64,000 bases of DNA from Cafeteria roenbergensis (taxonomy: Eukaryota > Sar > Bigyra > Bicosoecida > Cafeteriaceae): positions 186,001-250,000 of the forward strand of contig VLTN01000038.1 of the NCBI GenBank assembly GCA_008330645.1, read 5' to 3'. Shown in pieces: positions 3,001 through 64,000 of the stretch (within the stretch, counting starts at the first letter, position 1; every line of letters starts with the position of its first letter). The position numbers were made by a program, and so were the translations under genes. The notes beneath the pieces are model-generated. The model did no database searches, was not told where the DNA came from, and was given only the letters and a program-made list of their open reading frames with translations.

Positions 3001-4453
3001 CGTCCTCCGACGGCGGGGTCTTGGTTCCCTTGTCGCCAACCGACCCGCCATTGCCGGCGTCCTCCGACGGCGGGGTCTTGGTTCCCTTGTCGCCAACCGA
3101 CCCGCCAGCGCCGGGGTTCTCCGACGGCGGGGTCTTGGTTCCCTTGTCGCCAACCGACCCGCCATTGCCGGCGTCCTCCGACGGCGGGGTCTTGGTTCCC
3201 TTGTCGCCAACCGACCCGCCATTGCCGGCGTCCTCCGACGGCGGGGTCTTGGTTCCCTTGTCGCCAACCGACCCGCCATTGCCGGCGTCCTCCGACGGCG
3301 GGGTCTTGGTTCCCTTGTTGTCGACCGACCCGCCATTGCCGGCGTCCTCCGACGGCGGGGTCTTGTTTCCCTTGTCGCCAACCGACCCGCCATTGCCGGC
3401 GTCCTCCGACGGCGGGGGCTTGGTTCCCTTGTTGTCGACCGACCCGCCATTGCCGGCGTCCTCCGACGGCGGGGTCTTGGTTCCCTTGTCGCCAACCGAC
3501 CCGCCATTGCCAGCGTCCTCCGACGGCGGGGTCTGGGTTCCCTTGTTGTCGACCGACCCGCCATTGCCGGCGTCCTCCGACGGCGGGGTCTTGGTTCCCT
3601 TGTTGTCGACCGACCCGCCATTGCCGGCGTCCTCCGACGGCGGGGTCTTGGTTCCCTTGTCGCCAACCGACCCGCCATTGCCGGCGTCCTCCGACGGCGG
3701 GGTCTTGGTTCCCTTGTTGTCGACCGACCCGCCATTGCCGGCGTCCTCCGACGGCGGGGTCTTGGTTCCCTTGTTGTCGACCGACCCGCCATTGCCGGCG
3801 TCCTCCGACGGCGGGGTCTTGGTTCCCTTGTCGCCGCCTGAGCCTGCCTTGGCACTGGCCGGCTTGCTCGCAGAACCACTCGCCTTGCTGCTTTTGGATG
3901 ACCCAGGGCCGATGGGATTCGGCATTGCGATCCCGCCGTCTCCGCCAAAGTTCCCGCCCGATGCGTCGCCTGGCGCAGGCACGGCCTCCGGGCTCACGAC
4001 GTCCTGCAGATGCTCAGGATCGGCGCCAGGCTTCTTTTGGCCGTCATCTACGACAACATCGTCGGAGCCCGGGTTGTTCTCGGTGCTTGTTGGCGTTGGA
4101 GCGGCCACGTTGTCTCCTGGCGCGGTCTGCTGCGCATTCCCCGAGCCGCCGGGAGAGCTGCCTTGGCTTGCCTCGAGAACCGGGGCATGCTGTTCAACGT
4201 TAGGATGTAGGGCATCGTTGGTCTCTGACTCGTCGTTGTTGGCCGTGGCCAGGGCCGAACCGGAGTCGCCGCGTCCCCGAGTCCCGTCAGTCACGGCGAG
4301 TGGGGTGGTCATCGACTCCTCAGCCACTGCTGCGCCGCCCCCACTCCGGCGCGTTGCTTTGCTTCCCCATGGCGAGGTGTCGGCGCCTTTCTGGCCGAGC
4401 GCCGCTGCGACGGCAGCCACGACAAGCAAGCAAACTGCAAGGCGCATTTCCAC
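1..4453 (-). CDS. Repeat-rich type I membrane or surface protein, 3' end outside window
   Basis: The reading frame starts at 4453 with a signal peptide (MEMRLAVCLLVVAAVAAALG). About 185 residues rich in S, T, N, D and P follow. Then comes a long array of 19-residue repeats (KTPPSEDAGNGGSV(D/G)(N/D)KGT, with an ENPGASGS variant) encoded by 57-bp units down to about 341. Beyond the array the minus strand encodes a serine/proline-rich stretch and a hydrophobic helix (SGTVLLAVMLLVAGAFVYKL, about 65-125), followed by a tail that runs off the window. This reads as secreted ectodomain, one membrane span and a short inner tail. The frame is not continuous: single-base length differences are visible near 1455, 1184, 2620 and 2733, and one more is needed near 340. 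The 2620/2733 pair cancel; the 1455/1184 pair cancel in frame but enclose a stop at 1394. Assembly error in the array or real decay are both possible. Function unknown; adhesion or cell coat is a guess. Confidence 0.6.
341..3836 (-). repeat. 57-bp coding minisatellite, about 61 units
   Basis: Near-perfect tandem units of 57 bp (19 codons) fill this stretch. Two main unit types alternate irregularly: one reads VDNKGT, the other VGDKGT. A rarer third type carries CTAGCGCCGGGGTTC, giving ENPGASGS or ENPGAGGS instead of EDAGNGGS. Blocks of several units recur in the same order, for example around 950-1180 and 1530-1750. That points to recent unequal exchange or slippage of multi-unit blocks. All six frames stay open over long spans because 57 is a multiple of three, which produces several long spurious ORFs. 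Confidence 0.93.
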
Positions 4454-44122: not shown

Positions 44123-46786
44123 GTGGCGTCGCAGCCGTCGATGGCAACGACAGCCGGGCCCAACGCCGGCGCGACCCCCGCTGCCCGCCAGACGCCAGCT
44201 GCTCCCAATGCAGGGCTGCCACCCGCTGCAGGGTCGCTGCCCGCTGCACAAGCCGACCCGAGCAGACCCACCGACGTCACGAAGGCCGCGATCGACGAAG
44301 CGCTAGCGGACCCCCTCGGAATGAGACGTGCAGAGCTGCCAGCAGAAATGCAGACGGAGGACTTCGAAGATACCGCGTGCCGATACTGCGGCGTGAGCTA
44401 CGTTGTCATGTCAGAGTTGAGGGAAATGCAAGACAGAGTCATTCGGGCCGAGGCCGTGGTCGAAGGCTGGCGGGACAGAATCAGCAGGACCGTCGCTGCC
44501 GAGGCGGCCAAGGAGCAGGCCGAGGCATCCGCGGAACGTCACAGGCACCAAGCGAGCGCGTTGCGGCGAAGACTGGCGTCTCTTCGCACGGCAGCAGCGG
44601 CGGTCAAGCGGTCGTCTGAGTCAGCTGCCCGGTCCATCCGGGCGACATCAGCGGAAGTCAAGTGTGCCCTGCAGGCCACGGGGTTTGTGAGGACGCAGGC
44701 TGCCGCCCGTGTCCCGCTCGTCTCGGCAAGCTCCGCCGCGGGGAAGCCAAGCCACGCAGCTGCCACGGTCACCGCGCCCGCCACTGCCTGTGACTCTCCC
44801 GACAGCCCACTGCTGGGGCCGTTCGCGATGCAATGGTCGGAAGCCGCGTCTGCGGCCGTGGCGGCGGCAACAGCCGCGGCAGCGGCCAGCAGACGCCGTG
44901 CAATAGCTGAGCTTCAAGGGAAGCTGGACGCTGCGGCACTCGCCGCAGAGGAGGCGAAGGAAGGGTCAGCCGACCGCCTAGCTGCAGCGGAAAGCGGCAG
45001 GCGGGCTGCAGAGGCTGAATGCGCGAAACTCCGCGCCGAGTTGCACACGCTGCGAGCCGAGGCAGCGTCGGCGTCTGACGCAGCCAAGGCGGCTGCTCGC
45101 CGCGCGGAAGCCAGTCTGGCCGAGGCCGGGAGACACAAGGCTGCAGCCGAGGCTGAGGCTGTCAGCATGGCGCGACTTTGCTCGGAGCACGAAGAGGCGA
45201 AGGCGAGGTTGCAACAGACTGCAGTTGACCTCGCCGAGCAACTCCGCGTCGCCAAGGCAAGCGACGCCGAAGGCCTGCGGCTGCTTCGCAGGCAGCTGCA
45301 CGAGAGCGAAGCACGCGTGAGAGACGTGACCGCGTCATCTTCCGAGGCACAGGCGGAGCTGCAACGGCGAGCCCGAGAGGCAGAGCGCAAGGTCGCCGCC
45401 CTTGAACGAGTCGCGGCCGACGCGCAAGCATCGGCGAAGCAGCTGGCCGAGGAGCTGCGCCGCGCCGAGCGCCGTCGTGTCGCAGAGGTGAGCGCTGCAG
45501 CTGATGGCGCAGCTGAGGCGGTCTCGCAGGCCAACCAGGCAGCTGAGAGGCACGAGGCGGCACGGCGCAAGGCTGAGGCCGACCTGAAGGCTCTGGCCGA
45601 CCGGTCTGCGACTCAGGCGGGCAGGGCAGCGGACCTCCTCAAGGCAGCAGAAGCGGCGAAACAGCTGGCCGAGGCAAAGGCGGAGTCTGCCAGCCAGCGG
45701 CTTCAAGAGCAGCTGGCCAAGGCATCCGCAACCGGCAACGAAGCCGCGGCCGAGCTGAGCAGAGTCAAGGCGCTCCTGGCGACAGCGCGGCAGACAGCTG
45801 TCGCGGCCGATGCAGCGAGGGAGGCGGAGGCCGCCACCGTCGCCTCCCTGCAGCGTCGCGTGACACAGCTGTCGTCAGAGCTATCGGCAGAGTCTGAAAG
45901 AGTGCGAGCGCGGGATGCGGCTGCTGCGGCTGCGGCTGCGAGGGCGGAGGAGGCGGAAAAGCAGGCGGCTGATGCGACGGCAAAGCTCGACGCTCAGGTG
46001 AAGGCAGCGAGCAGTGGCACCGAGCCCGCGCATGCCAAGGCTGCATCACGCGAGCTGACGACGCTACTGCTTTCGATGCCAAGCGTGGTTGCTTCAATGG
46101 CAGGCGCCGTCGCTGCGACTGCTGTCCCGGACGCGAGCGGGCACGTCGCCGCCAGCTCGGACGACATCCACGCGGATCTGTTGCGGAGCTGCGGGCTGAG
46201 CCATGCTGGCAGCGCCAAGAGCGATGATCGCCGCGACGGCGTCGGGATGTGGCCAGGTGCCGTTGCCACCAGTGAGGGTGCCACGGTCGGAGGCTCCGCA
46301 ACTGCCAAGGGGCTGGATGCGACTCGGCTAGCACAGCTGTTGACGGCTGCATCCGGCAAAGTGGAGCGCGGTGCGGAGCTGCTGCGAAGTGAGGTGTTGT
46401 CCTTGCGACACACTGTCGAGCGAGAGTGCGCTGAGCGTCTCGACCTCATGGAGCAGCTGGAGTCACTGCGGGGATCATCATCGCGGCGCCAAGGGTCTCC
46501 GCGCCCAGAGCAGAGTCATGCGCCCGAGCGTGGCCGCCCTGCTCCCGAGACGTGGACTGGATCATGTGGCGGCTCGGCCGGTGCACGCCCAGCGAGTCCG
46601 CAGTCTGGGCGCCCCACAGCTGCGACAGCTGCTGGCGCGAGGGGCAGCCGGCGGTCGGGCCTGTCGTCTGCGGGGAGCCAAGCGCTGCAGGCCCCCCTGG
46701 CGGCAGCACCGCCGGCCGGAGGGCGGTCAGACACGTCGTGGACGTCAGCTCGAGGCAGAGCCGGCGCAAGGAGGGGCCGGCGATAG
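44123..46786 (+). CDS. Long coiled-coil protein resembling LEKR1, copy 1
   Basis: A single exon of 887 residues begins MASQPSMATTAGPNAGATPA. After an Ala/Pro leader, residues 72-100 read ELPAEMQTEDFEDTACRYCG followed by VSYVVMSELREM. The CxxCGVSY motif and its spacing recall, from memory, the N-terminus of animal LEKR1 (leucine-, glutamate- and lysine-rich protein 1). From about residue 95 to 620 the sequence is a near-continuous heptad coiled coil rich in Ala, Glu, Arg and Lys. A Ser/Gly/Ala-rich region and a second short coil (KVERGAELLRSEVLSLRHTV, then EQLESL) follow. The C-terminus is Ser/Gly/Arg-rich and ends RGRAGARRGRR. It is probably structural or cytoskeletal. It lies upstream of the ankyrin gene in the same orientation, and both are in the duplicated block. 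Confidence 0.75.
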   Translation: MASQPSMATTAGPNAGATPAARQTPAAPNAGLPPAAGSLPAAQADPSRPTDVTKAAIDEALADPLGMRRAELPAEMQTEDFEDTACRYCGVSYVVMSELREMQDRVIRAEAVVEGWRDRISRTVAAEAAKEQAEASAERHRHQASALRRRLASLRTAAAAVKRSSESAARSIRATSAEVKCALQATGFVRTQAAARVPLVSASSAAGKPSHAAATVTAPATACDSPDSPLLGPFAMQWSEAASAAVAAATAAAAASRRRAIAELQGKLDAAALAAEEAKEGSADRLAAAESGRRAAEAECAKLRAELHTLRAEAASASDAAKAAARRAEASLAEAGRHKAAAEAEAVSMARLCSEHEEAKARLQQTAVDLAEQLRVAKASDAEGLRLLRRQLHESEARVRDVTASSSEAQAELQRRAREAERKVAALERVAADAQASAKQLAEELRRAERRRVAEVSAAADGAAEAVSQANQAAERHEAARRKAEADLKALADRSATQAGRAADLLKAAEAAKQLAEAKAESASQRLQEQLAKASATGNEAAAELSRVKALLATARQTAVAADAAREAEAATVASLQRRVTQLSSELSAESERVRARDAAAAAAAARAEEAEKQAADATAKLDAQVKAASSGTEPAHAKAASRELTTLLLSMPSVVASMAGAVAATAVPDASGHVAASSDDIHADLLRSCGLSHAGSAKSDDRRDGVGMWPGAVATSEGATVGGSATAKGLDATRLAQLLTAASGKVERGAELLRSEVLSLRHTVERECAERLDLMEQLESLRGSSSRRQGSPRPEQSHAPERGRPAPETWTGSCGGSAGARPASPQSGRPTAATAAGARGSRRSGLSSAGSQALQAPLAAAPPAGGRSDTSWTSARGRAGARRGRR

Positions 46787-48086
46787 TTCCAGGGCATGGG
46801 GGCGCGTGTGCCCATGCGTGGTCCGGCTGCGATTGCGTGGCCGGGCAGGGACTGCGCGCCGCTTGGGCAGGTGCGTGGGCCGTTTGACTGTGCTTGCGAT
46901 GACAATCCTGCGCTGCTGCTGTTCCCCCAAGTTGAGCGGCCGCAGCCCTCAGACGCGGCAACAACAACCCCGAGCCTGCTCTGCCCCACGGCAAGCGCGG
47001 GACATCCCACCCGCTCGCAGGCTCGCCCTCTGGGCGGGCACACCGGTTCCAGCCCGCGTGGGGCCCACCGGCCGCGTCCCATAGCTGTCGCACGCGCCCC
47101 GAGTGGTGGATGTGCATGCTCGATTCGATCGACTGACCCTCCCTCCCGTCCCTCGGGCGACCCTGGCGGTCCCCGCCACGCCGAAGTGTAGCCGCTTGGC
47201 CATCACCGGTCCCGCACTCGCGCGCGGTCGCCCGACGCCCTTGATGGTCAGCATTCGCTTTGTGGGGCGCCTCATCGATCGGAGTATTTGCCAACCGGAG
47301 CAATATCGCGCCTGCAGCCAGCCTCAGACCGCGGCGCACGCCAGAAGCTCAAGCGCGACTCGTTTGTCCAACGATCATGGCAAACCTCACCCCAGACGCG
47401 CTCGCAGACGCCATTGCGGCCGGCCAGTTCGACCAGGTGCTAGCAGCCGTCGACGGCGGGCTCGGCAAGGACAGCTGCCTGGTGCGTCTGCCGATGGGCT
47501 GCTGAGGGGCAGGCTCTTGGGGTACCCCGCAGGCGGACTGGCCAGGGGTCTGAAATTGGCGGCTGCATGCTGGCGCTTGCGGCCCGGGTGCGCGGGGGCA
47601 CGCCCGGCGCGAACGGGCGGCTGCGCTGACCGGGAGCAGCTCGACTCTTGCTCGTTGTTGTGCTGCGCTGTCTTTTGCTTGCAGTGCGGGCGCCCGCTGA
47701 TCCTCGAGGCAGCAGCTGCCGGAGGGAAGGCCCTTGTGGAAGGACTGCTGGACCGTGGCGCGGACGTGGCGACGAAGACGCCGGTGAGCGGCAGCAAGCG
47801 GAAGCTTGGCAACGGCTGCGCCGAAGCACACGCTGGGCACCTGCAAGTTCCCCTGACCTTGGGCGTTGGGGAGGGACTCGCCAAGCCCGATGCATCCAGC
47901 TTGTGCAGGGGTTGGACGGTGCCGGGGCGGCCATAGTGGCGACCGTGGTTGATGTGCATGTTTCGGTGCTGTCTGATGTGACTGCAGGACGGCTGGACGG
48001 CGGTCATGCTGGCTGCTCAGAATGGCCACGAGTCGACTGTGGAGCTGCTTCTCGACCGCGGTGCCGACATGGAGGCACGCAACGCG
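44163..48086 (+). repeat. Segmental duplication, copy 1 (coiled-coil gene plus ankyrin gene 5' part)
   Basis: This stretch matches 59594-63515 at a constant offset of 15431 bp from 44163 to the ankyrin start codon (47377 versus 62808). The offset then changes by two bases in ankyrin intron 1. Differences are scattered substitutions of a few percent by eye. Left of 44163 the two loci share nothing. Right of ankyrin exon 3 the introns belong to the same repeat family but are not each other's closest match. Confidence 0.9.
46787..47376. promoter_or_regulatory. Spacer upstream of ankyrin gene 1
   Basis: The 590 bp run from the coiled-coil stop codon to the ankyrin start and contain the presumed ankyrin promoter. 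The segment about 47015-47230 includes the core shared (inverted) with 40740-40950. The corresponding copy is 62218-62807. Confidence 0.5.
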
Positions 48087-51000
48087 GTGAGCGGTGGTAT
48101 CAATCCGCCTCAGCCGCCATGAAGCGTGTCCCGCTGATCGCCACGGGCGGGCTGTGACCGTGCCCGGTGATGGTCTGAGGCGGGCAGTGAGCTGCAGGGA
48201 GCCCTACGTGGGCCCAAAGGCTGGCCCGCGCTGTCCAATGCGGCGTGGGTGCGCCGCGTGTGGGGTGGCGTTCGACGAGGGGAGGCAGCATGGCGTGTCG
48301 TCGGCCTGGTGGTGGGGCGCTCCGGCGCAGCTGCTGGCCGCAGGTGTCGGGCCCGGCGCCGGGCTTGGCGGCGCAGTGTTTGGATCGGGCTGGAGTGTGT
48401 CGATGGCTCACTGGCGGGTGCGGGGGCAGCAGCCGTGGGTGGCTGCGATGTTCAGGGTGGGCAGCTGGGGACGAGGAGGCACGGTTGGAAGCCGTGGCGG
48501 CATACAGCGTTGAAGTGGACGGGGAGGGTGTATTTTGGTGTGTGGGTGCTCGGCATCGTGCTGGACGGCCGGCGTGTGTCTGCGTCGCAGCGCGGTCTTT
48601 GGGGCGAGGGCATGATGTGTTGGGGGGGGCACGATGGCGACGTTGCGCATTTGCGTGCCTGGTTGTTTGTCCGTTGTGACTGCAGCTCGGCTGGACTGCG
48701 ATCATTGCAGCTGCAAGCAACGGCCACGAGTCGACTGTGGGGCTGCTACTGGACCGCGGTGCCGACGTGAAACCGCAGACCACGGTGAGCGCATGCTCTG
48801 ATCCGCCGCAACCGCCTTGCAGCGTGTTCCGAGACCACCACGGGCGTGCTTTGCATATGCGCCGCTGGACGGAGGCGAGCACTGAACTGCAGGCTATCTT
48901 GCTAGGCCTGTCGGTTTGCGCGCGCGCTGTCCGATGCGTCATGGGTGCACTGCATATGGGTGGCTGTTGCGAAATCGAGGCAACGCTGCGTGGCGTCGCT
49001 CTCGTAGTGGGGCGATCAGGCGAGATGGCGGGCGCAGGTGGCGGGCCGACGCGTGGGGCGTGGTGGCGCAGTGTGTGGCTGGGGCTGGAGTGTGTCGATG
49101 GCTCGTTGGCGGGGGCGGGGGTGGCAGCTGTGGGTGGCTGCGGGGACTGGGGTGGGCAGCTGGGTACAGGGCGGCTAAGGCAACATGCTTGGCAGCGGTG
49201 CCGGCGTTGGCGCGGGCAGGGTGGGTGGCTTCTTGTGTGTGTGTGTTGGGCATCGTTCTCGACGGCTGGCGTGTGTCTTTGTCGCGGGGCGGTGTGGGGC
49301 AAGGGCATGATGTGTTGGGGGCGGTCGAAGTGGCGACTGTGGTTGGTGTGCATGTTTCATTGCTCTCTGCTGTGACTACAGGACGGCTGGACGGCGGTCA
49401 TGTGGGCTGCTCAGGACGGCCACGATTCGACTGTGGAGCTGCTGCTGGACAGTGGCGCCGACGTGGAGGCACGGGAAGCAGTGAGCACATGACTTGATCT
49501 GCCGCGGCCACGGTAGTGCGCCTTCGGGGGTGCCCTCCGAGCGAGCTGTGTCCGTGCCCGCCGCTGGTCGGTGGCGGGCAGTGAGTCGCAGGCAGCACTG
49601 TCTGGGGCCTGTCGGCTTCCACACGCTTTTCTGTGCGTCATGGGTGCACTGCATATGGGTGGCTGTTGCGGAAGCGAGGCAGCGCTGCGTGACGTCGGTC
49701 TGGTGGCGGGGCGATCAGGCACTGCATCGGACGCAAGTGGCGGGCCGACGCGTGGGGCGTGGTGGCGCAGTGTGTGGCTGGGGCTGGAGTGTGTCGATGG
49801 CTCGTTGGCGGGGGCGGGGGTGGCAGCTGAGGACGAGGAGGCACGGTTGGAAGCCGCGGCGGCGTCCGGCATTGGCGCGGGCAGGGTGGGTGGTTTCTTG
49901 TGCGTGTGCTGGGCATCGTTCTCGACGGCCGGCGTGTGTCTTTGTCGCGGGGCGGTGTGGGGCAAGGGCATGATGTGTTGGGGGCGGTCGAGGTGGCGAC
50001 TGTGGTTGGTGTGCATGTTTCGTTGCTCTCTGCTGTGACTGCAGGACGGCTGGACGGCGATAATGTTGGCTGCACAGGACGGCCACGATTCGACTGTGGA
50101 GCTGCTGCTGGACCGCGGCGCCGACGTGGAGGCACGCAACGCGGTGAGCGGTTGCTGCGTATCCCGTGACTTCCATGGCTGGACTGTCACCGTGCCCGAC
50201 GTTGATCTGAGGCGGGCAGAGATCGGCTGGCAGTCTTTGCTGGGGCCTGTCGGTTTGCGCGCGCGCTCTCCGATGCGTCATGGGTGCACTGCATATGGGT
50301 GGCTGTTGCGGAAGCGAGGCAGCGCTGCGTGGCGTCGCTCTCGTAGTGGGGCGATCAGGCACTGCATCGGACGCAGGTGGCGGGCCGTCTCCTGGCGTGG
50401 TGGCATAGCGTGTGGCTGGGGCTGGAGTGTGTCGATGGCTCGCTGGTGGGGGCGGGGGCAGCAGCCGTGGGTTGCTGCGAGGTTCAGGGTGGACAGCTGG
50501 GGACGAGGAGGCACGGTTGGAAGCCGCGGCGGCGTCCGGCATTGGCGCGGGCAGGGTGGGTGGCTTCTTGTGTGTGTGTGTGTTGGGCATCGTTCTCGAC
50601 GGCCGGCGTGTGTCTGTGTCGCGGGGCGGTGTGGGGCGAGGGCATGATGTGCAAGGGGGGGGGCATGGTGGCGACTGTGGCTGGTGTGCATGTTTAGTTG
50701 CTCTCTGCTGTGACTACAGGACGGCTGGACGGCGATCATGTTGGCTGCACTGGACGGCCACGATTCGACTGTGGAGCTGCTGCTGGACCGCGGCGCCGAC
50801 GTGGAAGCGCCTGATGATGTGAGAACGTGTCCTGATCCGCCACAGGCTCAGTGGAGCGTGTCCTGGCGGCAATTACTGGCAGGTTGTGATCGTGCCCAGT
50901 ATTGCACGCATGCAGGCAATGAGCCACAGGCAGACTCTGCAGGGACCCGGCGGGCTGTGCGCACTTTCCGATTTGGCGTGGCTGGGTCGGAAGTGGTGTG

Positions 51001-53733
51001 GCGGCTACGCGTGGCAGGCAACGCGGCATGGCGTCGGCCTGGTGGCGGGCCCGCGCGTGGGGCATGGTGGCGCAGTGTGTGGCTCGGCCTGGAGTGTGTC
51101 GATGGCTCGCTGGCGGGGGCGGGTGTGGCAGCCGTGGGTGGCTGCGTGGGCTGGAATGGACCGCTGGGTGAAGTGTGGCATGGCTGGCGGCTGTGATCGA
51201 CATGCGCGGCCAGTGATATTTGGTGTGGCTGCAGGACGGCTGGACGGCGGTCATGGTGGCTTCAAAAAACGGCCACGAGTCAACTGTGGGGCTGCTGCTG
51301 GACCATGGCGCCGAGGTGAACATTCGGAGCAGAGTGAGCAGATGACGCAATGAGCCGTAGCATCGATGCAACGTGGCTCACTGACCGCCACGGGCTGGCT
51401 CTGCGCCCGCCGCTGGTCCGAGGCAGGCTGTGATTGGCAGAGAGCGCTTGCTGGGGCCTGTCGATTTGCGCGCGCGCTGTCCGATGCGTCATGGGTGCAC
51501 TGCATATGGGGTGGCTGTTGCGGAAGCGAGGCAGCGCTGCGTGGCGTGGCTCTAGTGGTGGGGCGATCAGGCACTGCATCGGACGCAGGTGGCGGGCCGA
51601 CGCGTGGGGCGTGGTGGCGCAGTGTGTGGCTGGGGCTGGAGTGTGTCGATGGCTCGTTGGCGGGGGCGGGAGCAGCAGCTGTGGGTGGCTGCGGGGACTG
51701 GGGTGGGCAGCTGGGTACAGGGCGGCTAAGGCAACATGCTTGGCAGCGGTGCCGGCGTTGGCGCGGGCAGGGTGGGTGGTTTCTTGTGTGTGTGTGTATT
51801 TGGCGTGGTGCTGGTTGGCTGCTGTGTGTCGGCGTGCCAGGGCGGTGTGGGGCAAGGGCATGATGTGTTGGGGGCGGTCGAAGTGGCGACTGTGGTTGGT
51901 GTGCATGTTTCGTTGGTCTCTGCTGTGACTGCAGGACGGCTGGACGGTGGTTATGGCGGCCGCACAGGGCGGCCACGAGTCGACTGCGAGGCTGCTGCTG
52001 GACCGCGGCGCCGACGTGGAGCCACGCAGCACGGTGAGCTTAAATCCTGATCTGCCGCGGCCACGGTAGTGCGCCTTCGGGGGTGCCCTCCGAGCGAGCT
52101 GTGACCGTGCCCGCCGCTGGTCGGTGGCGGGCAGTGAGTCGCAGGTAGCATTGTCTGGGGCCTGTCGGCTTCCACACGCTTTTCTGTGCGTCATGGGTGC
52201 ACTGCATATGGGGTGGCTGTTGCGGAAGCGAGGCAGCGCTGCGTGACGTCGGTCTGGTGGTGGGGCGATCAGGCACTGCATCGGACGCAGGTGGCGGGCC
52301 GACGCGTGGGGCGTGGTGGCGCAGTGTGTGGCTGGGGCTGGAGTGTGTCGATGGCTCGTTGGCGGGGGCGGGGGTGGCAGCTGTGGGTGGCTGCGGGGAC
52401 TGGGGTGGGCAGCTGGGTACAGGGCGGCTAAGGCAACATGCTTGGCAGCGGTGCCGGCGTTGGCGCGGGCAGGGTGGGTGGTTTCTTGTGCGTGTGCTGG
52501 GCATCGTTCTCGACGGCTGGCGTGTGTCTTTGTCGCGGGGCGGTGTGGGGCAAGGGCATGATGTGTTGGGGGCGGTCGAGGTGGCGACTGTGGTTGGTGT
52601 GCATGTTTCATTGCTCTCTGCTGTGACTACAGGACGGCTGGACGGCGGTCATGTGGGCTGCTCAGGACGGCCACGATTCGACTGTGGAGCTGCTGCTGGA
52701 CCGTGGCGCCGACGTGGAGGCACGGGAAGCAGTGAGCGGTGGTATCAATCCGCCGCAGCCGCCTTGCAGTGTGTCCCGCAGACCGCCACGAGCGGGCTGT
52801 GACCGTGCCCGGTGGTGGTCTGAGGCGGGCAGTGAGCCGCTGGCAGACTTCGCTGGGACCTTGTCGGTTTGCGCGCGCTGTCCGATGCGGTGTGGGTGTC
52901 CTGCGTGTGGGGTGGCGGTCGCTGAGGGGAGGCAGCACGTCGTGTGGTCGGCCTGGTGGTGGTGGGCTCCGGCGCAGGTGGCGGGCCCGCGCGTGGGGCG
53001 TGGTGGCGCAGTGTGTGGCTCGGGCTGGAGTGTGTCGATGGCTCGCTGGCGGGGGCGGGGGTGGCAGCTGTGGGTGGCTGCGGGGACTGGGACGGACAAC
53101 TGCGGGCCCCGAGGGGGCATGGCTGCCGGGCGTGGCGGCGTCCGGCTTCGGCGCGGGCGGGGCGGGTGTTGCTTGTTTGGCGTGTCTGTTGGGCGTCGAC
53201 CTGGACGGCTGGCGAGTGTCTGTGTCGCGGGGCGGTCGTTGGTGCGAGGGCATGATGTGCTGGGTCGGCCGTGGTGGCGACTGTGGTTGACGAGCATGTT
53301 TCGGAGCTGTCTGATGTGACTGCAGGACGGCTGGACGGCGGTCATGGTGGCTGCGAGCAATGGCCACGAGTCGACAGTGGAGCTGCTGCTCGACCGAGGC
53401 GCCGATGTGACAGCCACCAACGCCGTAAGTAGCCGTTGGATTCGCTTCGTGGCTCCTTCCGCTGCAGGCAAGCAAGCGTCCGGCAGCGGCTTCGTCTGGT
53501 CTCGCACAGCCTGCGGCGTTGCTTTGCCGCTGGGTCCGTCCAGCTTTGCGCTAAGCGACGCGCTGCTTGCTTGCGCGGAACCCTGGTTGTGGTGCTCACA
53601 GGACGGCGAAACTGCGCTCTGCGTCGCCGCCAATGCCTCAGTGCTGAAGGTGCTTGAACAAGCAGACTGCCTCCAGCGTTGGCATCGGCGCGCGATCCTG
53701 GCCTTGTGGCGCCGAGCCTGTGGCTGGAAGTGA
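47377..53733 (+). CDS. Ankyrin-repeat protein, one repeat per exon, 12 exons
   Basis: The exons are 47377-47481, 47685-47783, 47988-48086, 48686-48784, 49382-49480, 50045-50143, 50720-50818, 51235-51333, 51935-52033, 52633-52731, 53326-53424 and 53602-53733, giving 408 residues. Exon 1 (35 codons) encodes the N-cap (MANLTPDALADAIAAGQFDQ). Exons 2-11 are each exactly 99 bp and encode one 33-residue ankyrin repeat with the same borders (DGWTAVMLAA, then GH(D/E)STVELLLDRGADVEA). Exon 12 is the C-cap (DGETALCVAANASVLKVLEQ) ending at a stop. All junctions are phase 0 with GTGAGN, GTGCGT or GTAAGT donors and CTGCAG, CTACAG or TCACAG acceptors. Because every repeat exon is symmetric, skipping any of them keeps the frame. 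No other domain, signal peptide or membrane helix is seen. A protein-binding scaffold is inferred; the partner is unknown. Confidence 0.9.
48087..53325 (+). repeat. Tandem array of exon-intron units (8 homologous introns)
   Basis: Introns 3-10 of the ankyrin gene (48087-48685, 48785-49381, 49481-50044, 50144-50719, 50819-51234, 51334-51934, 52034-52632, 52732-53325) share long stretches of sequence. Examples are GGCGCAGTGTGTGGCTGGGG, GGAGTGTGTCGATGGCTC and GCATGATGTGTTGGGGGCGG. Together with their 99-bp exons they form about 515-700 bp units. Introns 5 and 9 share an almost identical first 180 bp; introns 4 and 9 share an almost identical last 300 bp. Exons 5 and 10 differ by a single base. 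Introns 1, 2 and 11 (203, 204 and 177 bp) are not part of the family. Confidence 0.9.
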
Positions 53734-54344
53734 GCTTGTCTCAGTTTCGGCCGCGCGCACCTGAACCTGCTGGGTGAAACGGACGAAGAGAGGCCGCGTG
53801 CGGGTGAAGGGCTGATTGCCACTGACTGTGCGACAACGCCTCCGATTCGTCCTAGTGCGTGTGACCGTGGGGAATGGTGATCACGCATCCAGCAGTGGCC
53901 AAATGGGAACCAGTTCGGTGTCCGGCGCCAGCAGGCTGGGAGTAGCGGTGCCTTGCTCAGAGACTGCCCCCACGGGGGCACTGAAACCTCGCAAGCCACC
54001 TCTCAGCCTGCCGCGGGATGGGCGGGCGGGTCACGAATGCGGCTTTGCTCTCACACAACCTCAAAGCCGACCGCAACGGGCCCTGGAGTGCTGTGCGAGC
54101 GTTCGCACGGCACGGCGGGCAAGAAAAGCGCTTGCTGCGCGCGCCTTGCCGGAGAGCTGCTTGTCCTGGCCGCCGGCGCAGGCGGGTAGACTCGAGCGCG
54201 GGACCCTCTGAGACACGACGGGGGCCGCCCCAGCACGCTGCCGGGAAGCTGCGCGGCCCAGGAGAGTGTAGAGACGAGGCCAGGTCGCCCGAGTGCTTTG
54301 CCAGGGTAAAATCCACGTCTGCGGACAAGAATGAGCCCAACCGG
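53734..54344. other. Convergent intergenic region
   Basis: The 3' flanks of the ankyrin gene (plus) and the signal-peptide protein gene (minus) meet here. Nothing is recognised. Composition drops towards the lower-GC minus-strand gene. Confidence 0.5.
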
Positions 54345-57207
54345 TTACCCAACGAGAGGTTCGGTATTGCCTGTGAAGGGGTCCCACCACTGGCCCGGCA
54401 CTGTGGGCCTGCAGGAGGGTCTTGGAATACACCCAGTCTGGGGCTCCAGCAGCTCGTCGGCAGAAGCACTCAAGGTCTGGCCAGCAGAACCTTTCCTGCC
54501 GGTGCACCGGTTCTGGGAGGGTCTCTCAATGTCGCTCGACATTGGCTCTGGGGCATCGTCAGAGCTGGATGGAGCTCCAAAAAAGCTCGACTGGGCGGCC
54601 TCCTTTGGAATCGCCTCAGCTTTGCTGAGCAAAGTCTGCGGCTCAGGCACGTGCAGGGAGCTTCGAAACGACATACTGCCCGAAGCGGCTGCTCCGTGAG
54701 AGTCAAACAGATGAGTTGGCGTTGTTTGCCGAGGGTAGCACTGACTCATTCGAAGAATCGTAGCATTGGCCTCATCAAATGCGTCCAGAGCGCCCAACAG
54801 CAATTCAGCGTCTGGCCGACGTTGGGCACCGCCGCTGGGGGAGCTAGAACCGTGCCGCATTGCTGACCAAACCGTCAAGCACAGGGCAGACCCCAACCTT
54901 ATGGCGGCAGCCTTGAGGCTTGCTGTGTTTGGCTTCCAAACGCCGCACTTGTAAAGGTGGCACCGGGCAACGTCGACTGCCCTGTTCAGTCGTGACGCGC
55001 TGCTGATGGAGAGCATCAACGCCAGCGCTGAGGGGTCCACCGCCAAATCCGGCAAACTTGAAGGGGCTGCGCTCGGGCTCGCTTCCGGTGGGCCACTGAT
55101 CGGTGCGTTGACCTCATCGCGAACTCTCTGCATGATGGTGTTGAAGTCAGAAGCTGCAGAACTCTTGGAGCCGCCGAGTTCGCCGCAGAACTCGTGCAGA
55201 AGGCCGCTGTCGACGGCCCCTCGAAGAAGACTTGCGGTTTCACGTTCAGCGCAATGCTCCGCATGGGCGCCCTTGCCGCGAGGGCCCTTGCAGGTGCCTG
55301 GGCATTCTTCGTCGCCGTCCGTGGTCCTTCCCTCTCCCTTGCCCGCGCCTGGTCCGGCGGCTGGACTGGCGCTTGCGGCAGTTCTGACGGCCGCAGCTGC
55401 TGCCCGTTTGCCGCGGTGTTTTCCTGCCCCAAAGATGGCCCCAGCGGGCCAGCCTCGCTTGGGAGCCCTGCTAGCCTGAATAGCCCGTGCAGCCACTCTC
55501 GCGCCTCGGTCCTCCGCCACGTCAGGCGTTCGCACCTCCGCCCAGGAAAACTTGTTCTTCACAAATCTCTGGTGCTCAGCTTTTAGCTTTTTATTGTCCA
55601 ATTTCGGCCTAGCGACAGGCCCCGCATCTGAAGGCGATACGAGCAATTTCTCGGCCTCGGTTGACAAATCTTTGCGTGCCTTCGTCTCGTTCTCCAGCAA
55701 CTGGACCACTTCGGGTGCTGCTCCGTATTCTCCCCGTGCGATCTTGGCAACCCTCTGGGCAGCCAGCACGATAGGAGACCGCGAAATAGAGAATTCTGTC
55801 GGCGCATTCTCGCGCTCCAGCGCCATGGCCGCCATCAGAGCCGCCCTGGCAGCGTCGAGAGCCATCGACGCGACGTGAACAGCAGTCGCAGCTGTTTCCC
55901 AATTGGGGACAGCCGCTACGAGGTTAACTGCGTGGGCTGCCAGCGAGGCTGCGACGACTGACGCGTTTGCTGCCCGCCGGGCCATTGAGAGCCGATTCAC
56001 AGGCTGCGCTTTGCCTTGGCAGGCTCTGGGGAATTGCCACTTGCCTCCCGTGCGGGCCAGCCGTTCTGCCAGGGTGCACCTCGCATCGTGTCGATGCCGG
56101 TTCAAGGGGCAGCAGTTCCAGACCTGCGCGTGTTCGCCCAGCTCAGGAGCATCTCCCTCGAGGCCGTCCAGCGATGAGTTGAGCGACGTCCACGCCACCG
56201 ACTCTGGGCGAAGCAGCGCCATCGAAGGCACGATGTTCTCGCGCAAGGACACGGGGTAGTTGTACACCTGCACCAGTCCGGCCTGGATGTCTGCCAGCCC
56301 CGAGGCATTCTGCCGAATGTGCTCGAGCCCCTCGAATGCAGTGCTTGCCGCTTTGAAGAGAGAGAAGCTCGGAAGCTGTGCTTTTGCTTCCGGGACCCTC
56401 ACCGACGAAGCCAAGTCCAAGAACTGGCGCGCAAAGTTTGTCGTGGCAATGTCCTGCATCAAGAAAGGGGCAGCTTCTGGTCGGACGAAGCTGCTCGGCC
56501 TTCGGTCGCCATCACCAAGTGGCAGCAGCAGCTCAGTTTGCCCGCTCTGCTTGACGGGCGAATTTCCCCAGGCGACAACGGGTGCCCAGGAGTGATTGGT
56601 TGCCTTGTGCAGACCAAGGGTCTGACGAGTGAGCCAGTCCTGCAGCTCGGTCTCAAAGTCGCTGATCTTGCTGCTTGCCTCGCTCGTGACGTTGAGGGGC
56701 ACGACGCCGTGAACCACGAGGTCTGCCACCTCGCAGCCGGTCGAGAGCTCGACGGCCTTTCCGTAGTCCAGCGCTCTGCGCAGCGCCGCCTCAAAGTACT
56801 TCAGCGGGTCGGTCTCCGTGAAAGGTCTGCAAGGCGTGTGTGTGGCCAACTCGACCTTGCCTGCCTTGAGCAGAGGAATTCGCATTGTCGCGTCGGCCAT
56901 CTGGCAACGAACGAGCCGAGCGGACCAAATGTACAGGGCGCCGATGGTGCAGTCCACTGCGAAAGCCGGCGCCTGCGAAGACCGAGTTTGGCACGCGGGC
57001 AACAAGGACATGGCGAGTGAGAACTCCACTTGGGGGCCGCGGGGAGCAGACGGGTCCCGCTGCCTGGCCCGGGCCGCCGGAGCAGGCGCGCGGCGCGCGC
57101 TCCGCGTTGTTTGGCGCTGCGCCAGCCGGCGAGCTGAAAGGCGGGCGGAGCAAGAGCCGGCTTACCCAGAGCGCCAAAACGACCAACGCCACAGCAATGG
57201 TCCGCAT
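54345..57207 (-). CDS. Putative secreted or luminal protein of unknown family, lower GC
   Basis: The minus-strand exons are 57207-57166 and 56972-54345 (donor CTCTGG^GTAAGC, acceptor GGTCTTCGCAG, phase 0), giving 889 residues. The short first exon plus the start of exon 2 make a textbook signal peptide: MRTIAVALVVLALWAPAFA with likely cleavage before VDC. The mature N-terminus runs TIGALYIWSARLVRCQMADA. Other features are a charged helical part (PLKYFEAALRRALDYGKAVE), an Ala-rich helical region (AANASVVAASLAAHAVNLVA and following), a Lys/Arg segment, a small Cys cluster (CPGTCKGPRGKGAHAEHC) and a Ser-rich C-terminus ending PFTGNTEPLVG. No C-terminal membrane helix is seen. The third codon position is clearly less GC-rich than in neighbouring genes. 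No family is recognised. Without the first exon, an alternative start at 57029 would lack the clean signal peptide. Confidence 0.65.
56973..57165 (-). other. Intron of the signal-peptide protein gene
   Basis: The donor is CTCTGG^GTAAGC and the acceptor CGGTCTTCGCAG^GCGCCG. It is 193 bp and phase 0. Support comes from the resulting AxA signal-peptidase site (APAFA). Confidence 0.68.
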
Positions 57208-57771: not shown

Positions 57772-59593
57772 TCACAAACACACGCCGGGCACGCCCTGCT
57801 CGCACGCCGCCGCACCTCTTGCGCCTGCTGCGCCCGAAGCAGCCTGTTCCCGCAGCCGCATCGCCTCCCCGCGCCAGTAGTCGATCGCGGCAGCCTGCCG
57901 CCGCTCTGCCTTGTCGCGGCCAGCGCTCGCGGCGGACTGTCGCTCCACTGCACGGGCCGCGTCCCTCGCCGCAGCCACGGCGCCTCTCAGCCCTGCTTTG
58001 AGCGCCGCTGCCTCGCTCCCTTCCCGTGTCGGCGCGATGCCACCCCGGCCAGTGTCCCCACCAAGGGCAGCTCCAGCCCCTTCCGGTCCCTCGCCAGGCT
58101 CGTTGGAACCGACCGCTCCGGCAGCTCGTCCGGACCGATGCTCTGCCGCCTCCACAGCCACTCGCAGCGCTGCCACAGTGGCCAGCAGGGACGCTGCAGC
58201 GGCCGCCAGCCCGTCGTCAGCGGCGGCCGCGACAGGGGCTCCCGCGCCGCCAGCGCCGCCTGCACCAGCGCCACTGCCGCAACCAACTCCCGCGCCAGCC
58301 TCGTCAGGCGGCTGCTGCGACGCCCTTGCACCGGGTGGCAAGCGCTCGGGATCCACACGGCCTTGCCCCCCAGCGAGCGAGCTTGCTGAGCCAGCCGGCC
58401 TGTGCGCCGAGGAGCGTGGCACCCGCCCGCCAGCCCCAGCCGAATGCCCCGGAGATGTCACCGGTGGCGATCGGCGGGGCGGCAGGGCTGATTTGGCCGG
58501 CGAGCAGGCCGCGGCCGGCGTGGCGGAAGATGCCACACCCTGTGACTGGGCTCGGCGAGGCACCGCCGACGGCTCCGGCGCGGACCGCTGAGAGACGGCA
58601 GGCCGACCCCCACGGCCGGGCACACCCTGGCTGGCCAAGCCCGGGCTGCGCCCCGAGGCCGGGCTCTGCGGGCGCTGGGCCGCAGGTGACCGGAGCGCCA
58701 TCGGCGGAGATGGGGGCGTGATGCGACGGTGATGGGGCGCGCCGGGCGAGGAGTGAGGCCCGCGCAGTGGGGAGCGCGGAGCGGCAACGGAACCCGGTGA
58801 GTCATGCGTCCGAGAGAGGCTGCGGCTGCCAGCTGTCCCGGCTGGGTGGGCGCCTCTGGCCGGTCGCTCAGCAGATCCCGCGAATCGGCTGGCAGCCACT
58901 GACGAGGTCGACGAGAAGCTGCCCCCACCCCCCCCCTGCGGACTGCGGCACCGACCGCCGCAACCACGTCAGCTGTCCGGCGAGTCGCAGCGTCGACCGA
59001 CGTCAGCGCTGATGCGCGCGTCACTGCCGACGCCTCCAGACGAGCCGCCCACGCCGACGATGACGGGCCGGCGACGCCGCCCGGACCACCTGCCGGCTCC
59101 CCCGCGGCCGCCGACGCTGCGCCCCTGCGAGACGCGTCCCCGCGGTGAGGCGAGGGTCGCCTGGCAGGGAGCCGCGCCTGCTGAGGCTGCGGTGGCCGCG
59201 GGCGGGGCTGGGACTGGGCGGCGCTCGGCGGGCTGGCGGCCGCGCCGCGGCGCGACTCAGACGCCGCACCGGCGCCCTGGCCACGGCCGCTGGAGCCGGG
59301 CGCGCGATTGCCCACCGCGGAAGCCGTGGGTGTGCCCCCTGCCGCGCGCCTGCCGCGGGAGGACTCGACAGCTCGGGCAGCGGCCTCTGCGCGCCGCACG
59401 GCCTCATCCACAGACGCTGTGCTCAGGGCGAAGCGGCCGCCGCGGGGGCGTGGCGCGAGCTGCGGGGGCAGGCCGAGCGCGGACTGCGTCGGCGCTGGGC
59501 CAGCCAAGCCGCCAGGGCCGCGCGTTCCGGCGAGCGAGTCGCAAGGCAAGGCAGCCATCGGAGGGTGGCGACGCGCACTTGCATCTGCTCCCG
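57772..59593 (-). pseudogene. 5'-truncated Ala/Pro-rich protein gene, interrupted by the duplication edge
   Basis: Protein-like minus-strand sequence enters at the duplication breakpoint (59593) in one frame: ALSTASVDEAVRRAEAAARA, then AWAARLEASAVTRASALTSV. It continues past a run of nine C (plus strand, 58928-58936) in another frame: VAASRFAGSAERPARGAHPA, later AAAASLLATVAALRVAVEAA and finally IDYWRGEAMRLREQ to a stop at 57772. A length change in the homopolymer, by sequencing error or mutation, would explain the frame switch. The short coiled segments and Ser/Pro linkers suggest a disordered cytoskeletal-type protein; the family is not recognised. No start codon of its own remains before the junction with the duplicated block. 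It may instead be an intact gene starting inside the block's antisense, which I think less likely. Confidence 0.45.
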
Positions 59594-62217: not shown

Positions 62218-62807
62218 TTCCAGGGCATGGGGGCGCGTGTGCCCGTGCGTGGTCCGGCTGCGTTTGCGTGGCCGGGCAGGGACTGCGCGCCGCTTGGGCA
62301 GATGCGTGAGCCGTTTGACTGTCCTTGTGATGACAATCCTGCGCTGCTGCTGTTCCCCCAAGTTGAGCGGCCGCAGCCCTCAGACGTGGCAACAACAACC
62401 CCGGGCCTGCTCTGCCCCACGGCAGGCGCGGCCCATCCGACCCGCTCGCAAGCTCGCCCTCTGAGCGGGCACACCGGCTCGAGTCCGTGTGGGGCTCGCC
62501 GGCCGCGTCCCATAGCTGCCGCACGCGCCCCGAGTGGTGCGTGTGTGCTCGATTCGATCGTTTGCCCCCTCACTCCCGTCCCTCGGGCGACCCCGTGTGG
62601 TCCCCGCCGCGCCGAAGTGCAGCCGCTTGGTCATCACCGGTCCCGCACTCGCACGCGGTCTCCCGACACCCTTGATGGTCAGCATTCGCTTTGTGGGGCG
62701 GCTGATCGAGCGGGATATTTGCCAACCGCGGCAATATCGCGCCTGCAGCCCGCCTCAGACCGCGGCGCACGCCAGAAGCTCAAGCGCGACTCGTGTGCCC
62801 AACGATC
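62218..62807. promoter_or_regulatory. Spacer upstream of ankyrin gene 2
   Basis: This duplicate of 46787-47376 has the same length. It includes the copy of the dispersed core at about 62565-62615, where CCCGTGTGG replaces CCTGGCGG of copy 1. Confidence 0.5.
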
Positions 62808-64000
62808 ATGGCCAACATGACCCCAGACGCGCTCGCAGACGCCATTGCGGCCGGCCAGTTCGACCAGGTGCTGGCAGCCGTCGACGGCGGGCTCGGCAAG
62901 GACAGCTGCCTGGTGCGTCTGCCGATGGGCTGCTGAGGGGCAGGCTCTTGGGGCACCCCGCAGGCGGACTGGCCAGGGGTCTGAAATTGGCGGCTGCATG
63001 CTGGCGCTTGCGGCCCGGGTGCGCGGGGGCACGCCCGGCGCGAACAGGCGGCTGCGCTGACCGGGAGCAGCTCGACTCTTGCTCGTTGTTTTGCTGCGCT
63101 GTCTTGCTTGCAGTGCGGGCGCCCGCTGATCCTCGAGGCAGCAGCTGCCGGAGGGAAGGCCCTTGTGGAAGGACTGCTGGACCGTGGCGCGGACGTGGCG
63201 ACGAAGACGCCAGTGAGCGGCAGCAAGCGGAAGCTTGACCACGGCTGCGCCGAAGCACACGATGAGCACCTGCAAGTTCCCCCGAGCTTGGGCGTTGGGC
63301 AGGGACTCGCCGAGCCCGATTCGTCCAGCTTGTGCAGGGGTTGGACGGTGCCGGGGCGGCCGTGGTGGCGACTGTGGTTTGTGTGCATGTTTCGGTGCTG
63401 TCTGATGTGACTGCAGGACGGCTGGACGGCGGTCATGCTGGCTGCACAGGACGGCCACGAGTCGACTGTGGAGCTGCTGCTCGACCGCGGCGCCGACGTG
63501 GAGGCACGGGAGGAGGTGAGCACAGTATCGATTGGCCGCAGCCGCGGTGGCGCGTATCCCGCTGACCGCCTCGGGCGGGCTGTGACCGAGCCTGCCGCTG
63601 GCCTGAGGCGGGCAGTGAGCCGCTGGCAGTCTTCGCTGGGACCTTGTCGGTTTGCGCGCGCTGTCCGATGCGGCGTGGGTGCGCCGCGTGTGGGGTGGCG
63701 GTCGCTGAGGGGAGGCAGCACGGCGTGTCGTCGGCCTGGTGGTGGTGGGCTCCGGCGCAGGTGGCGGGCCCGCGCGTGGGGCGTGGTGGCGCAGTGTGTG
63801 GCTCGGGCTGGAGTGTGTCGATGGCTCGCTGGCGGGGGCGGGGGTGGCAGCTGTGGGTGGCTGCGGGGACTGGGACGGACAACTGCGGGACCGAGGGGGA
63901 CGGGGCGGCATGGTTGGGGCCGTGACGGCGTCCGGCGTCAGCGCGGGTGGGGCTGGTGTTGCTTGTTTGGCATGGGTGTTGGGCGTCGTGCTGGACGGCC
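62808..64000 (+). CDS. Ankyrin-repeat protein, copy 2, 3' end outside window
   Basis: Visible exons are 62808-62912 (N-cap MANMTPDALADAIAAGQFDQ), 63114-63212 and 63417-63515. All are phase 0 and equivalent to exons 1-3 of the first ankyrin gene. Exon 3 encodes DGWTAVMLAAQDGHESTVEL and continues LLLDRGADVEAREE. Intron 3 begins at 63516 and extends past the window end. Its body matches intron 10 of ankyrin gene 1 (52732-53325) much better than intron 3 of gene 1. So the exon-intron units have been rearranged or converted since the duplication. Further repeat exons are expected beyond 64000. Confidence 0.88.

What the first reader, a model, noticed from the sequence alone, without database searches (positions are those of the whole stretch)
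47377..53733. Ankyrin gene built from an amplified exon-plus-intron module
Ten consecutive 99-bp exons each encode exactly one 33-residue ankyrin repeat with identical phase-0 borders. Eight of the intervening introns are copies of one another, so the amplified unit includes both exon and intron. Repeat-protein genes usually expand inside an exon. Here the intron travels with the repeat, which keeps every repeat separately splicable: skipping or rearranging any unit keeps the frame. This is a ready-made way to produce ankyrin scaffolds of variable length and order, by alternative splicing or by unequal crossover between introns.
Basis: partly seen in the sequence, partly recalled or inferred. 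Interest (0 to 1): 0.8.

Follow-up and report, generated by a model that had tools for sequence, protein, structure and literature searches.

The report
Ankyrin gene of repeated exon-intron modules
What looks like a single-celled marine flagellate carries many genes in which one ankyrin repeat, encoded by one 99-base exon with its own intron, has been copied in tandem, with changes piling up at the protein's likely binding surface, which resembles fast-evolving recognition genes described in brown algae and fungi.

Summary
The gene has 12 exons (408 aa, ankyrin only); ten consecutive exons are 99 bp, phase 0, one repeat each, and eight introns are copies of one another. It is not unique: hand-grouped genome hits form 45 clusters of spaced one-repeat units; all 21 that I read show splice-bounded 99-bp exons. 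By size, contig count and GC the genome matches Cafeteria roenbergensis strain BVI (inferred). In 16 arrays analysed (190 exons) introns fall into several dissimilar families, alike within arrays. The focal gene lies in a tandem segmental duplication: flanks are 95-96% identical, yet the arrays hold 9 versus 7 units, mostly without one-to-one matches, so the array turns over faster than its surroundings. Amino-acid-changing variation concentrates at positions varied in designed ankyrin binders, exceeding intron divergence there in 15 of 16 arrays. Best explanation: unequal exchange and gene conversion multiply and homogenise an intron+exon module while selection diversifies the binding face. 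Alternative splicing is untested. A pN/pS count near 0.9 and raised silent variation at the same codons leave positive selection unproven. Closest precedents: brown-algal LRR-ROCO and NB-ARC-TPR genes; fungal NLR repeats. New variant of a known kind.

The parts
47377..47481 (+). Exon 1: start codon and N-terminal cap (35 codons)
   Evidence: same exon start in the sister copy at 62808
47685..47783 (+). Exon 2: 99 bp, diverged cap-like ankyrin repeat, not part of the amplified set
   Evidence: protein identical in the sister copy
47988..48086 (+). Module exon 1 (99 bp, one ankyrin repeat)
48087..48685 (+). Module intron, 599 bp
48686..48784 (+). Module exon 2 (99 bp)
48785..49381 (+). Module intron, 597 bp
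49382..49480 (+). Module exon 3 (99 bp), 99% identical to module exon 8
49481..50044 (+). Module intron, 564 bp
50045..50143 (+). Module exon 4 (99 bp)
50144..50719 (+). Module intron, 576 bp
50720..50818 (+). Module exon 5 (99 bp)
50819..51234 (+). Module intron, 416 bp (shorter copy)
51235..51333 (+). Module exon 6 (99 bp)
51334..51934 (+). Module intron, 601 bp
51935..52033 (+). Module exon 7 (99 bp)
52034..52632 (+). Module intron, 599 bp
52633..52731 (+). Module exon 8 (99 bp)
52732..53325 (+). Module intron, 594 bp
53326..53424 (+). Module exon 9 (99 bp), 94% identical to the last unit exon of the sister copy
53602..53733 (+). Terminal exon with C-terminal cap and stop
44159..55232 (+). 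First copy of a tandem segmental duplication holding the gene (matches 59590 onward); the right end is only as far as the sister copy was read
62808..64000 (+). Start of the sister gene (its array continues past the window: eight 99-bp exons in all, seven of them DGWT units)
   Evidence: L010, L011

Best explanation
A protein-coding gene for an ankyrin-only repeat protein that grew by tandem multiplication of a DNA module made of one intron plus one 99-bp, phase-0 exon (one ankyrin repeat). Recombination between units (unequal crossing-over and gene conversion) adds, deletes and homogenises units within each array and sometimes moves units between loci. Because exon lengths and phases match, any such event leaves an open frame and a foldable solenoid. 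Selection keeps the framework residues and favours, or at least freely admits, change at the binding-face residues, giving a family of dozens of arrays whose products carry different binding surfaces. Shown here: anatomy, copying of intron with exon, likeness within arrays, faster turnover than flanks at the focal locus, concentration of variation at paratope positions. Inferred: splicing, the recombination mechanism, diversifying selection, and a role in recognising variable partners (viruses, prey or self).
For: Exon/intron map. All eight focal module introns hold an in-frame stop. Over 16 arrays, 174 of 174 inter-unit stretches end in CAG, 132 of 174 begin GTGAG, 113 of 174 have an in-frame stop and 59 of 174 have a length divisible by 3, the third expected without frame constraint (GT and AG were required by the finder; a few stretches, such as 455, 500 and 1300 bp, probably span a missed unit). 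Nearest exon, ties counted as own, lies in the same array for 141 of 158 interior exons. Exon distance correlates with a neighbouring intron at nominal p<0.05 on at least one side in 11 of 16 arrays. Sister gene: flanks 96.0%, 96.2%, 95.3%, 95.5% identical, but 9 versus 7 DGWT-type units, without clear one-to-one matches except the last. Distal C15 units have 179-bp introns averaging 97.7-98.8% identity to those of contig C91 and lie beside 214-bp-intron units. First/second-codon-position differences at six positions that differ among repeats of a DARPin (5leb): mean 0.266, against 0.093 for introns (15 of 16 arrays, p 6e-5) and 0.083 for fourfold silent sites at the other codons (16 of 16, p 3e-5). 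In array C91, 6 unit pairs have byte-identical downstream introns; all 6 differ in the exon, with 29 nonsynonymous and 0 synonymous differences (the four other arrays tested had no such pair).
Against: Nei-Gojobori pN/pS at the same six positions is 0.89 (bootstrap 0.69-1.17), and fourfold silent variation at those codons is also raised, 213 of 983 versus 1115 of 14019: codon-block exchange or a local mutational hot spot, with relaxed surface constraint, could give the pattern without positive selection. pN exceeds pS in only 8 of 16 arrays, and pS also exceeds intron divergence in 13 of 16. For the focal array, interior exon and intron divergence are similar (0.193 and 0.155); in C38b introns differ more than exons. 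In some other arrays introns could be read through: in C55 only 2 of 12 have an in-frame stop and 8 of 12 are divisible by 3. Presumed haplotigs show little unit-number change. No partner, expression or phenotype is known. The 32 Mantel tests were not corrected.
Confidence: 0.66

Rival explanations
1. Ordinary tandem exon duplication with neutral concerted evolution: units are copied and homogenised passively, framework residues are conserved, surface residues merely drift.
For: pN/pS near 0.9 at surface positions; silent sites raised at the same codons; fourfold silent sites and introns diverge alike (silent higher in 7 of 16 arrays, p 0.94).
Against: Amino-acid-changing surface sites exceed introns in 15 of 16 arrays; 29 to 0 nonsynonymous to synonymous differences between C91 units with identical introns.
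Confidence: 0.27
2. The array is a splicing cassette: cells make proteins of many lengths and orders from one gene by skipping exons, as reported for brown-algal LRR and TPR genes and Dscam. (Not exclusive of the best explanation.)
For: All units share length and phase, so any skip stays in frame; brown-algal ROCO genes with the same layout have several splice variants (PMC11378527, passages).
Against: Nothing here measures RNA; splice sites look uniform, which does not by itself suggest regulated skipping.
Confidence: 0.2
3. The introns are mobile introner-like elements that inserted between repeats, rather than travelling with exons in duplications.
For: Near-identical introns at several sites of one gene.
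Against: Long matches span several units, exons and introns together; the listed distant genome matches cover exon positions with at most about 16 bp of flank (list truncated); different arrays have dissimilar intron families around the same kind of exon.
Confidence: 0.03
4. Assembly artefact: long reads collapsed or multiplied one unit.
For: Some units elsewhere show probable consensus errors (a unit with a one-base shift at C10, a scrambled stretch in C129).
Against: Focal units differ from each other (introns 76-97% identical) and the pattern recurs in 45 hand-grouped clusters; the assembly that matches used PacBio reads at 45x for this strain (PMC6972860).
Confidence: 0.04

Closest known systems
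LRR-ROCO and NB-ARC-TPR genes of brown algae (PMC11378527, abstract and passages; Zambounis 2012 and Teng 2023 not read, known through it)
   Same: One repeat per exon of fixed length and phase (shown there for LRR), tandem arrays, exon shuffling, variable sites on the concave face; brown algae are stramenopiles too (recalled).
   Different: Repeats are LRR (72-bp exons, phase 2) or TPR joined to ROC-COR or NB-ARC; here the repeat is ankyrin (99 bp, phase 0), the focal protein has no signalling domain, and no NB-ARC match was found in the genome. Splice variants are reported there, untested here.
Fungal NLR repeats with high internal conservation (WD, TPR, ANK; PMC4986451, abstract and passages)
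   Same: Near-identical repeats, concerted evolution, repeat-number change, variation mostly on the ankyrin concave surface.
   Different: There the repeats are C-terminal domains of NLR proteins; here ankyrin-only, each repeat in its own exon, introns alike too. NACHT has one match in this genome, not at a listed array.
Vertebrate ankyrins ANK1-3 (gene structure recalled, from no call)
   Same: Many ankyrin repeats in exons of 99 bp or multiples (recalled).
   Different: Ancient, diverged repeats and introns, no homogenised intron copies (recalled).
DARPin libraries (PMC8683736 and PMC8229355, passages; sequence of 5leb)
   Same: Variation at the same six surface positions of a constant ankyrin framework (positions recalled; all six differ among the repeats of 5leb).
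   Different: Man-made; here the library-like variation is natural and genomic.

Membership tests
Ankyrin repeat proteins (PF00023) | 33-residue ankyrin repeats scoring over the Pfam cut-off | tested here: met
   Ank 272.6 bits, nine stretches; ankyrins and DARPins are the best solved relatives
One-repeat-per-exon shuffling arrays (brown-algal kind) | Each repeat in one exon of constant length and phase | tested here: met
   99 bp, phase 0, ten consecutive exons; the other arrays were found by the same 99-bp rule
One-repeat-per-exon shuffling arrays (brown-algal kind) | Variation concentrated on the ligand-binding face | tested here: met
   3.3-fold over other positions, permutation p 5e-5; 0.266 versus 0.093 in introns
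One-repeat-per-exon shuffling arrays (brown-algal kind) | Positive selection | tested here: inconclusive
   pN/pS 0.89 at the six positions against nonsynonymous excess over introns and over silent sites elsewhere; no codon-model test was run
One-repeat-per-exon shuffling arrays (brown-algal kind) | Alternative splicing of repeat exons | not testable with these tools
   no RNA data
NB-ARC-TPR or LRR-ROCO proteins proper | NB-ARC or ROC-COR domain in the same protein | tested here: not met
   spliced focal protein is ankyrin only; no NB-ARC match in the genome; ROC was not searched genome-wide, and other array proteins were not assembled
Fungal-type NLR with conserved repeats | NACHT/NB-ARC domain with the repeats | tested here: not met
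   (one NACHT match, C2:1115110, far from the listed arrays)
Introner elements | Same intron inserted in unrelated genes | tested here: not met
   listed intron matches confined to close ankyrin relatives (that search skips common words and its list is truncated)

The most novel reading that the evidence does not exclude
The arrays form a genome-encoded, continually reshuffled library of ankyrin binders, a natural counterpart of a DARPin library, that the flagellate uses for variable recognition (for instance of giant viruses or prey). Exon-bounded units let germline or even somatic recombination, plus exon skipping, generate new binders, and the short-block mosaic seen inside exons of array C91 may reflect a dedicated short-tract exchange mechanism.
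Probability: 0.15. Interest if true: 0.9.

Novelty: new variant of a known kind. Interest (0 to 1): 0.6.

Why it matters
If the organism is as inferred, it extends the 'one repeat, one exon' diversification scheme from brown-algal LRR and TPR receptors to ankyrin repeats in a heterotrophic flagellate that is host to a giant virus and a virophage, without an NLR domain in the protein. Introns inside the unit give a built-in yardstick, so selection on the binding face can be measured unit by unit, and four published strain assemblies make unit turnover directly testable.

Tried and rejected
Introner reading: rejected, because exons and introns match together over several units and the listed distant genomic matches are essentially exonic. 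NLR reading: no NB-ARC, one NACHT away from arrays. Telomere link: several clusters lie near contig ends (for example C2:149, C20:548728 of 548950), but the only telomere motif tried (TTAGGG x4) is absent from the assembly, and arrays may themselves end contigs, so I make no subtelomere claim. Diversity decaying from exon into intron: profiles differ between arrays, no conclusion. Four-gamete tests (10 of 16 arrays had enough units) show much shuffling inside exons (C91: 41 of 50 site pairs 10-30 bp apart), but introns shuffle as well in several arrays and repeated selection of the same residues would do the same. Exon excess over intron was first computed with end units included; the end units, often caps, were then dropped and the test repeated. 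Plain pN/pS at binding positions does not exceed 1 and is reported as evidence against. Unit-number polymorphism in C10/C129 is left inconclusive because C129 is scrambled at that end. Rfam: nothing at gathering thresholds in the window or in five loci.

Rows left out: introns of odd length (outside 12% of the median: 7 of 174 stretches; 20% for Mantel), the first and last introns where an array had more than five, and units that fail the 99-bp AG/GT pattern or the score threshold (100 for the 600-bp-intron family, 60 for the others) were not counted. Arrays on C133, C146, C111, C129, C130/C19, C36/C107/C114, the first C22 array and the distal C15 sub-array were read but are not among the 16. 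The 16 were picked for strong matches, not at random.
Full report
OBSERVATION. Between 47377 and 53733 the + strand carries a 12-exon gene: exon 1 (47377-47481), ten 99-bp phase-0 exons from 47685 to 53424, and a terminal exon (53602-53733). The spliced product is 408 aa. Pfam finds ankyrin repeats and one further hit below its cut-off. The first 99-bp exon is a diverged, cap-like repeat with short neighbouring introns; the amplified set is the nine DGWT-type exons (one begins LGWT) and the eight introns between them (599, 597, 564, 576, 416, 601, 599 and 594 bp), 76-97% identical pairwise. The exon finder gives no hit in the two window stretches outside this array and the sister copy, and none in 20 random sequences. 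Splicing is inferred from sequence; all eight module introns contain an in-frame stop.

GENOME CONTEXT. The window is contig C38:186001-250000 of a 36,303,456-bp, 167-contig genome; the window is about 69% GC. A published assembly of Cafeteria roenbergensis strain BVI has 36,327,047 bp, 170 contigs and 70.1% GC (PMC6972860, first two of five parts of the whole text). No chlorophyll-binding antenna domain is found by a six-frame search, as expected for a heterotroph. The identification is an inference from these figures. Strain E4-10 of the same species was later studied under the name C. burkhardae (PMC7852580, passages).

NOT ONE GENE BUT MANY. The focal DNA finds close relatives with about 600-bp introns on C38, C14, C22, C85, C146, C111, C133 and others, and C29 by protein search. 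A DNA pattern for LDRGADLE has 313 exact matches in the genome and none for the reversed pattern; one for LLDRGAD has 428 against 1. Grouping positions typed by hand from the truncated lists gives 45 clusters of two or more units spaced more than 120 bp and at most 2.5 kb apart. I read sequence at 21 of the 45, and all 21 show two or more splice-bounded 99-bp ankyrin exons; the other 24 were not read. The 16 arrays analysed hold 190 exons by the 99-bp AG/GT rule, 172 distinct as proteins.

INTRONS. By BLAST of one intron per array, introns fall into groups: about 600 bp (focal, C38b, C14, C22, C85, C29), 212-219 bp (C15, C55, C20, with C12 related), 241-242 bp (C7, C17, C18), and C91 (179 bp), C28 (171 bp) and C10 (200 bp), the last sharing only a short stretch with the 219-bp group. 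Of 174 inter-unit stretches in the 16 arrays, all end in CAG, 132 begin GTGAG, 113 have an in-frame stop and 59 have a length divisible by three, the share expected if length is unconstrained (GT and AG were required by the finder, and a few stretches span a missed unit). The picture is not uniform: in C55 only 2 of 12 introns have an in-frame stop and 8 of 12 are divisible by three, so read-through cannot be excluded there. The same kind of exon thus sits in dissimilar introns that are alike within each array. A C15 region passes from 214-bp-intron units to 179-bp-intron units whose introns average 97.7-98.8% identity to those of C91, three of seven having an identical counterpart: units have moved between loci.

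THE MODULE AND ITS TURNOVER. In the focal array exon distances follow the upstream intron (Mantel r 0.83, p 0.004) and not the downstream one (r -0.19), so the copied unit there is intron+exon; in 11 of 16 arrays at least one side has nominal p below 0.05 (32 uncorrected tests). The gene lies in a tandem segmental duplication (44159-55232 against 59590 onward). Identity is 96.0% upstream (3216 aligned bases), 96.2% over exon 1 to intron 2, 95.3% over the last module exon, last intron and terminal exon, and 95.5% downstream (1498 bases), while the inner exons match 74-92% and the introns 76-91% without clear one-to-one order, and the units number 9 against 7. The array has therefore changed faster than its flanks. 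Nearest exons lie in the same array for 141 of 158 interior exons, ties counted as own. Presumed haplotigs or recent copies change little: C130 and C19 share seven units at 99% until C130 enters an AT-rich stretch, C36/C107/C114 align throughout, and C10/C129 (99.4% over 4.2 kb) differ in one unit and at a 3' end where C129 looks scrambled.

WHERE THE VARIATION SITS. Averaged over 16 arrays, first- and second-position diversity peaks at unit positions 1, 3, 8, 11, 12, 32 and 33. The six positions that I took as randomised in DARPins (1, 3, 11, 12, 31, 33 in this register) are recalled; all six differ among the three repeats of DARPin chain 5leb, as do a few others. They are 3.3 times as diverse as the rest; none of 20,000 random sets of six codons reached this (p 5e-5). 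With end units removed, amino-acid-changing sites there differ at 0.266, against 0.093 in introns (15 of 16 arrays, Wilcoxon p 6e-5; the exception is C38b) and 0.083 at fourfold silent sites of the other codons (16 of 16, p 3e-5). In C91 six unit pairs with byte-identical 179-bp introns all differ in the exon, 29 nonsynonymous to 0 synonymous (pairs are not independent). Against this: Nei-Gojobori pN/pS at these positions is 0.89 (0.69-1.17), silent variation is raised at the same codons (213 of 983 versus 1115 of 14019), and pN exceeds pS in 8 of 16 arrays only. Exons of C91 look like mosaics of short blocks (four-gamete pairs 41 of 50 at 10-30 bp). Diversifying selection is thus likely but not proven, and codon-block exchange may contribute.

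HOW IT MOST LIKELY WORKS. Exchange between homologous introns and exons adds, removes and converts units; equal exon length and phase keep all products in frame; framework residues are held constant and binding-face residues vary. The products would be ankyrin binders of differing specificity. Function as recognition proteins is inferred from ankyrin biology and the place of variation. A transcriptome paper lists 'Ankyrin repeat' among enriched functions of differentially expressed genes of C. burkhardae (PMC7852580, passage), which does not identify these genes.

COMPARISON. The gene layout is that of brown-algal LRR-ROCO and NB-ARC-TPR genes (PMC11378527, abstract and passages); concerted evolution with concave-face variation in ankyrin repeats is known from fungal NLRs (PMC4986451, abstract and passages). 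Here the repeat type is ankyrin, the focal protein lacks signalling domains, no NB-ARC was found and one NACHT match is not at a listed array. Among the papers listed by my searches of the held library (capped lists) none has a title or abstract opening on such ankyrin arrays in this organism; the library lacks most subscription papers.

Noticed in passing
window 335-3833: A 57-bp unit repeated about 61 times (93% matches) in long open frames on both strands; the Pfam hits there look to me like repeat artefacts.
   Followed up: partly
window 44159-55232 and 59590-64000 onward: Tandem segmental duplication of about 15.4 kb period carrying the ankyrin gene and a neighbouring long open frame without Pfam match.
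   Followed up: partly
window 48001-54000: The introns are G-rich on the coding strand: GC skew 0.23-0.30 per 2 kb, against at most 0.12 elsewhere in the window; T also exceeds A there (AT skew about -0.26).
   Followed up: no
L040, L044, L043, L001, L041, L052-L054: A dispersed repeat recurs beside several ankyrin loci, and an open frame of about 400 aa without Pfam match lies in a 1.28-kb stretch 97% identical at C15 and C55; possibly a mobile element.
   Followed up: partly
L050 (C130) from about 2740: Compared with C19, C130 passes abruptly into AT-rich sequence inside an intron of the array, an apparent insertion absent from C19; its nature was not examined.
   Followed up: no
L043 1-420: Near-identical tandem TPR repeats in one open frame just upstream of the C55 ankyrin array.
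   Followed up: partly
L004 and L005 (C126, C162): Two short contigs, 99.6% identical over 2.2 kb, carry in-exon ankyrin arrays that then align with a 267-base shift, possibly alleles with different repeat number.
   Followed up: no
L052, L053, L054 (C36, C107, C114): Three 97-98% identical copies of a diverged one-repeat-per-exon array, with only small indels between them.
   Followed up: partly
L014 (C146:4444-8567): A partial further copy: two units joined directly behind a sequence that in the focal locus lies downstream of the gene, with the break 15-20 bp before an exon.
   Followed up: no
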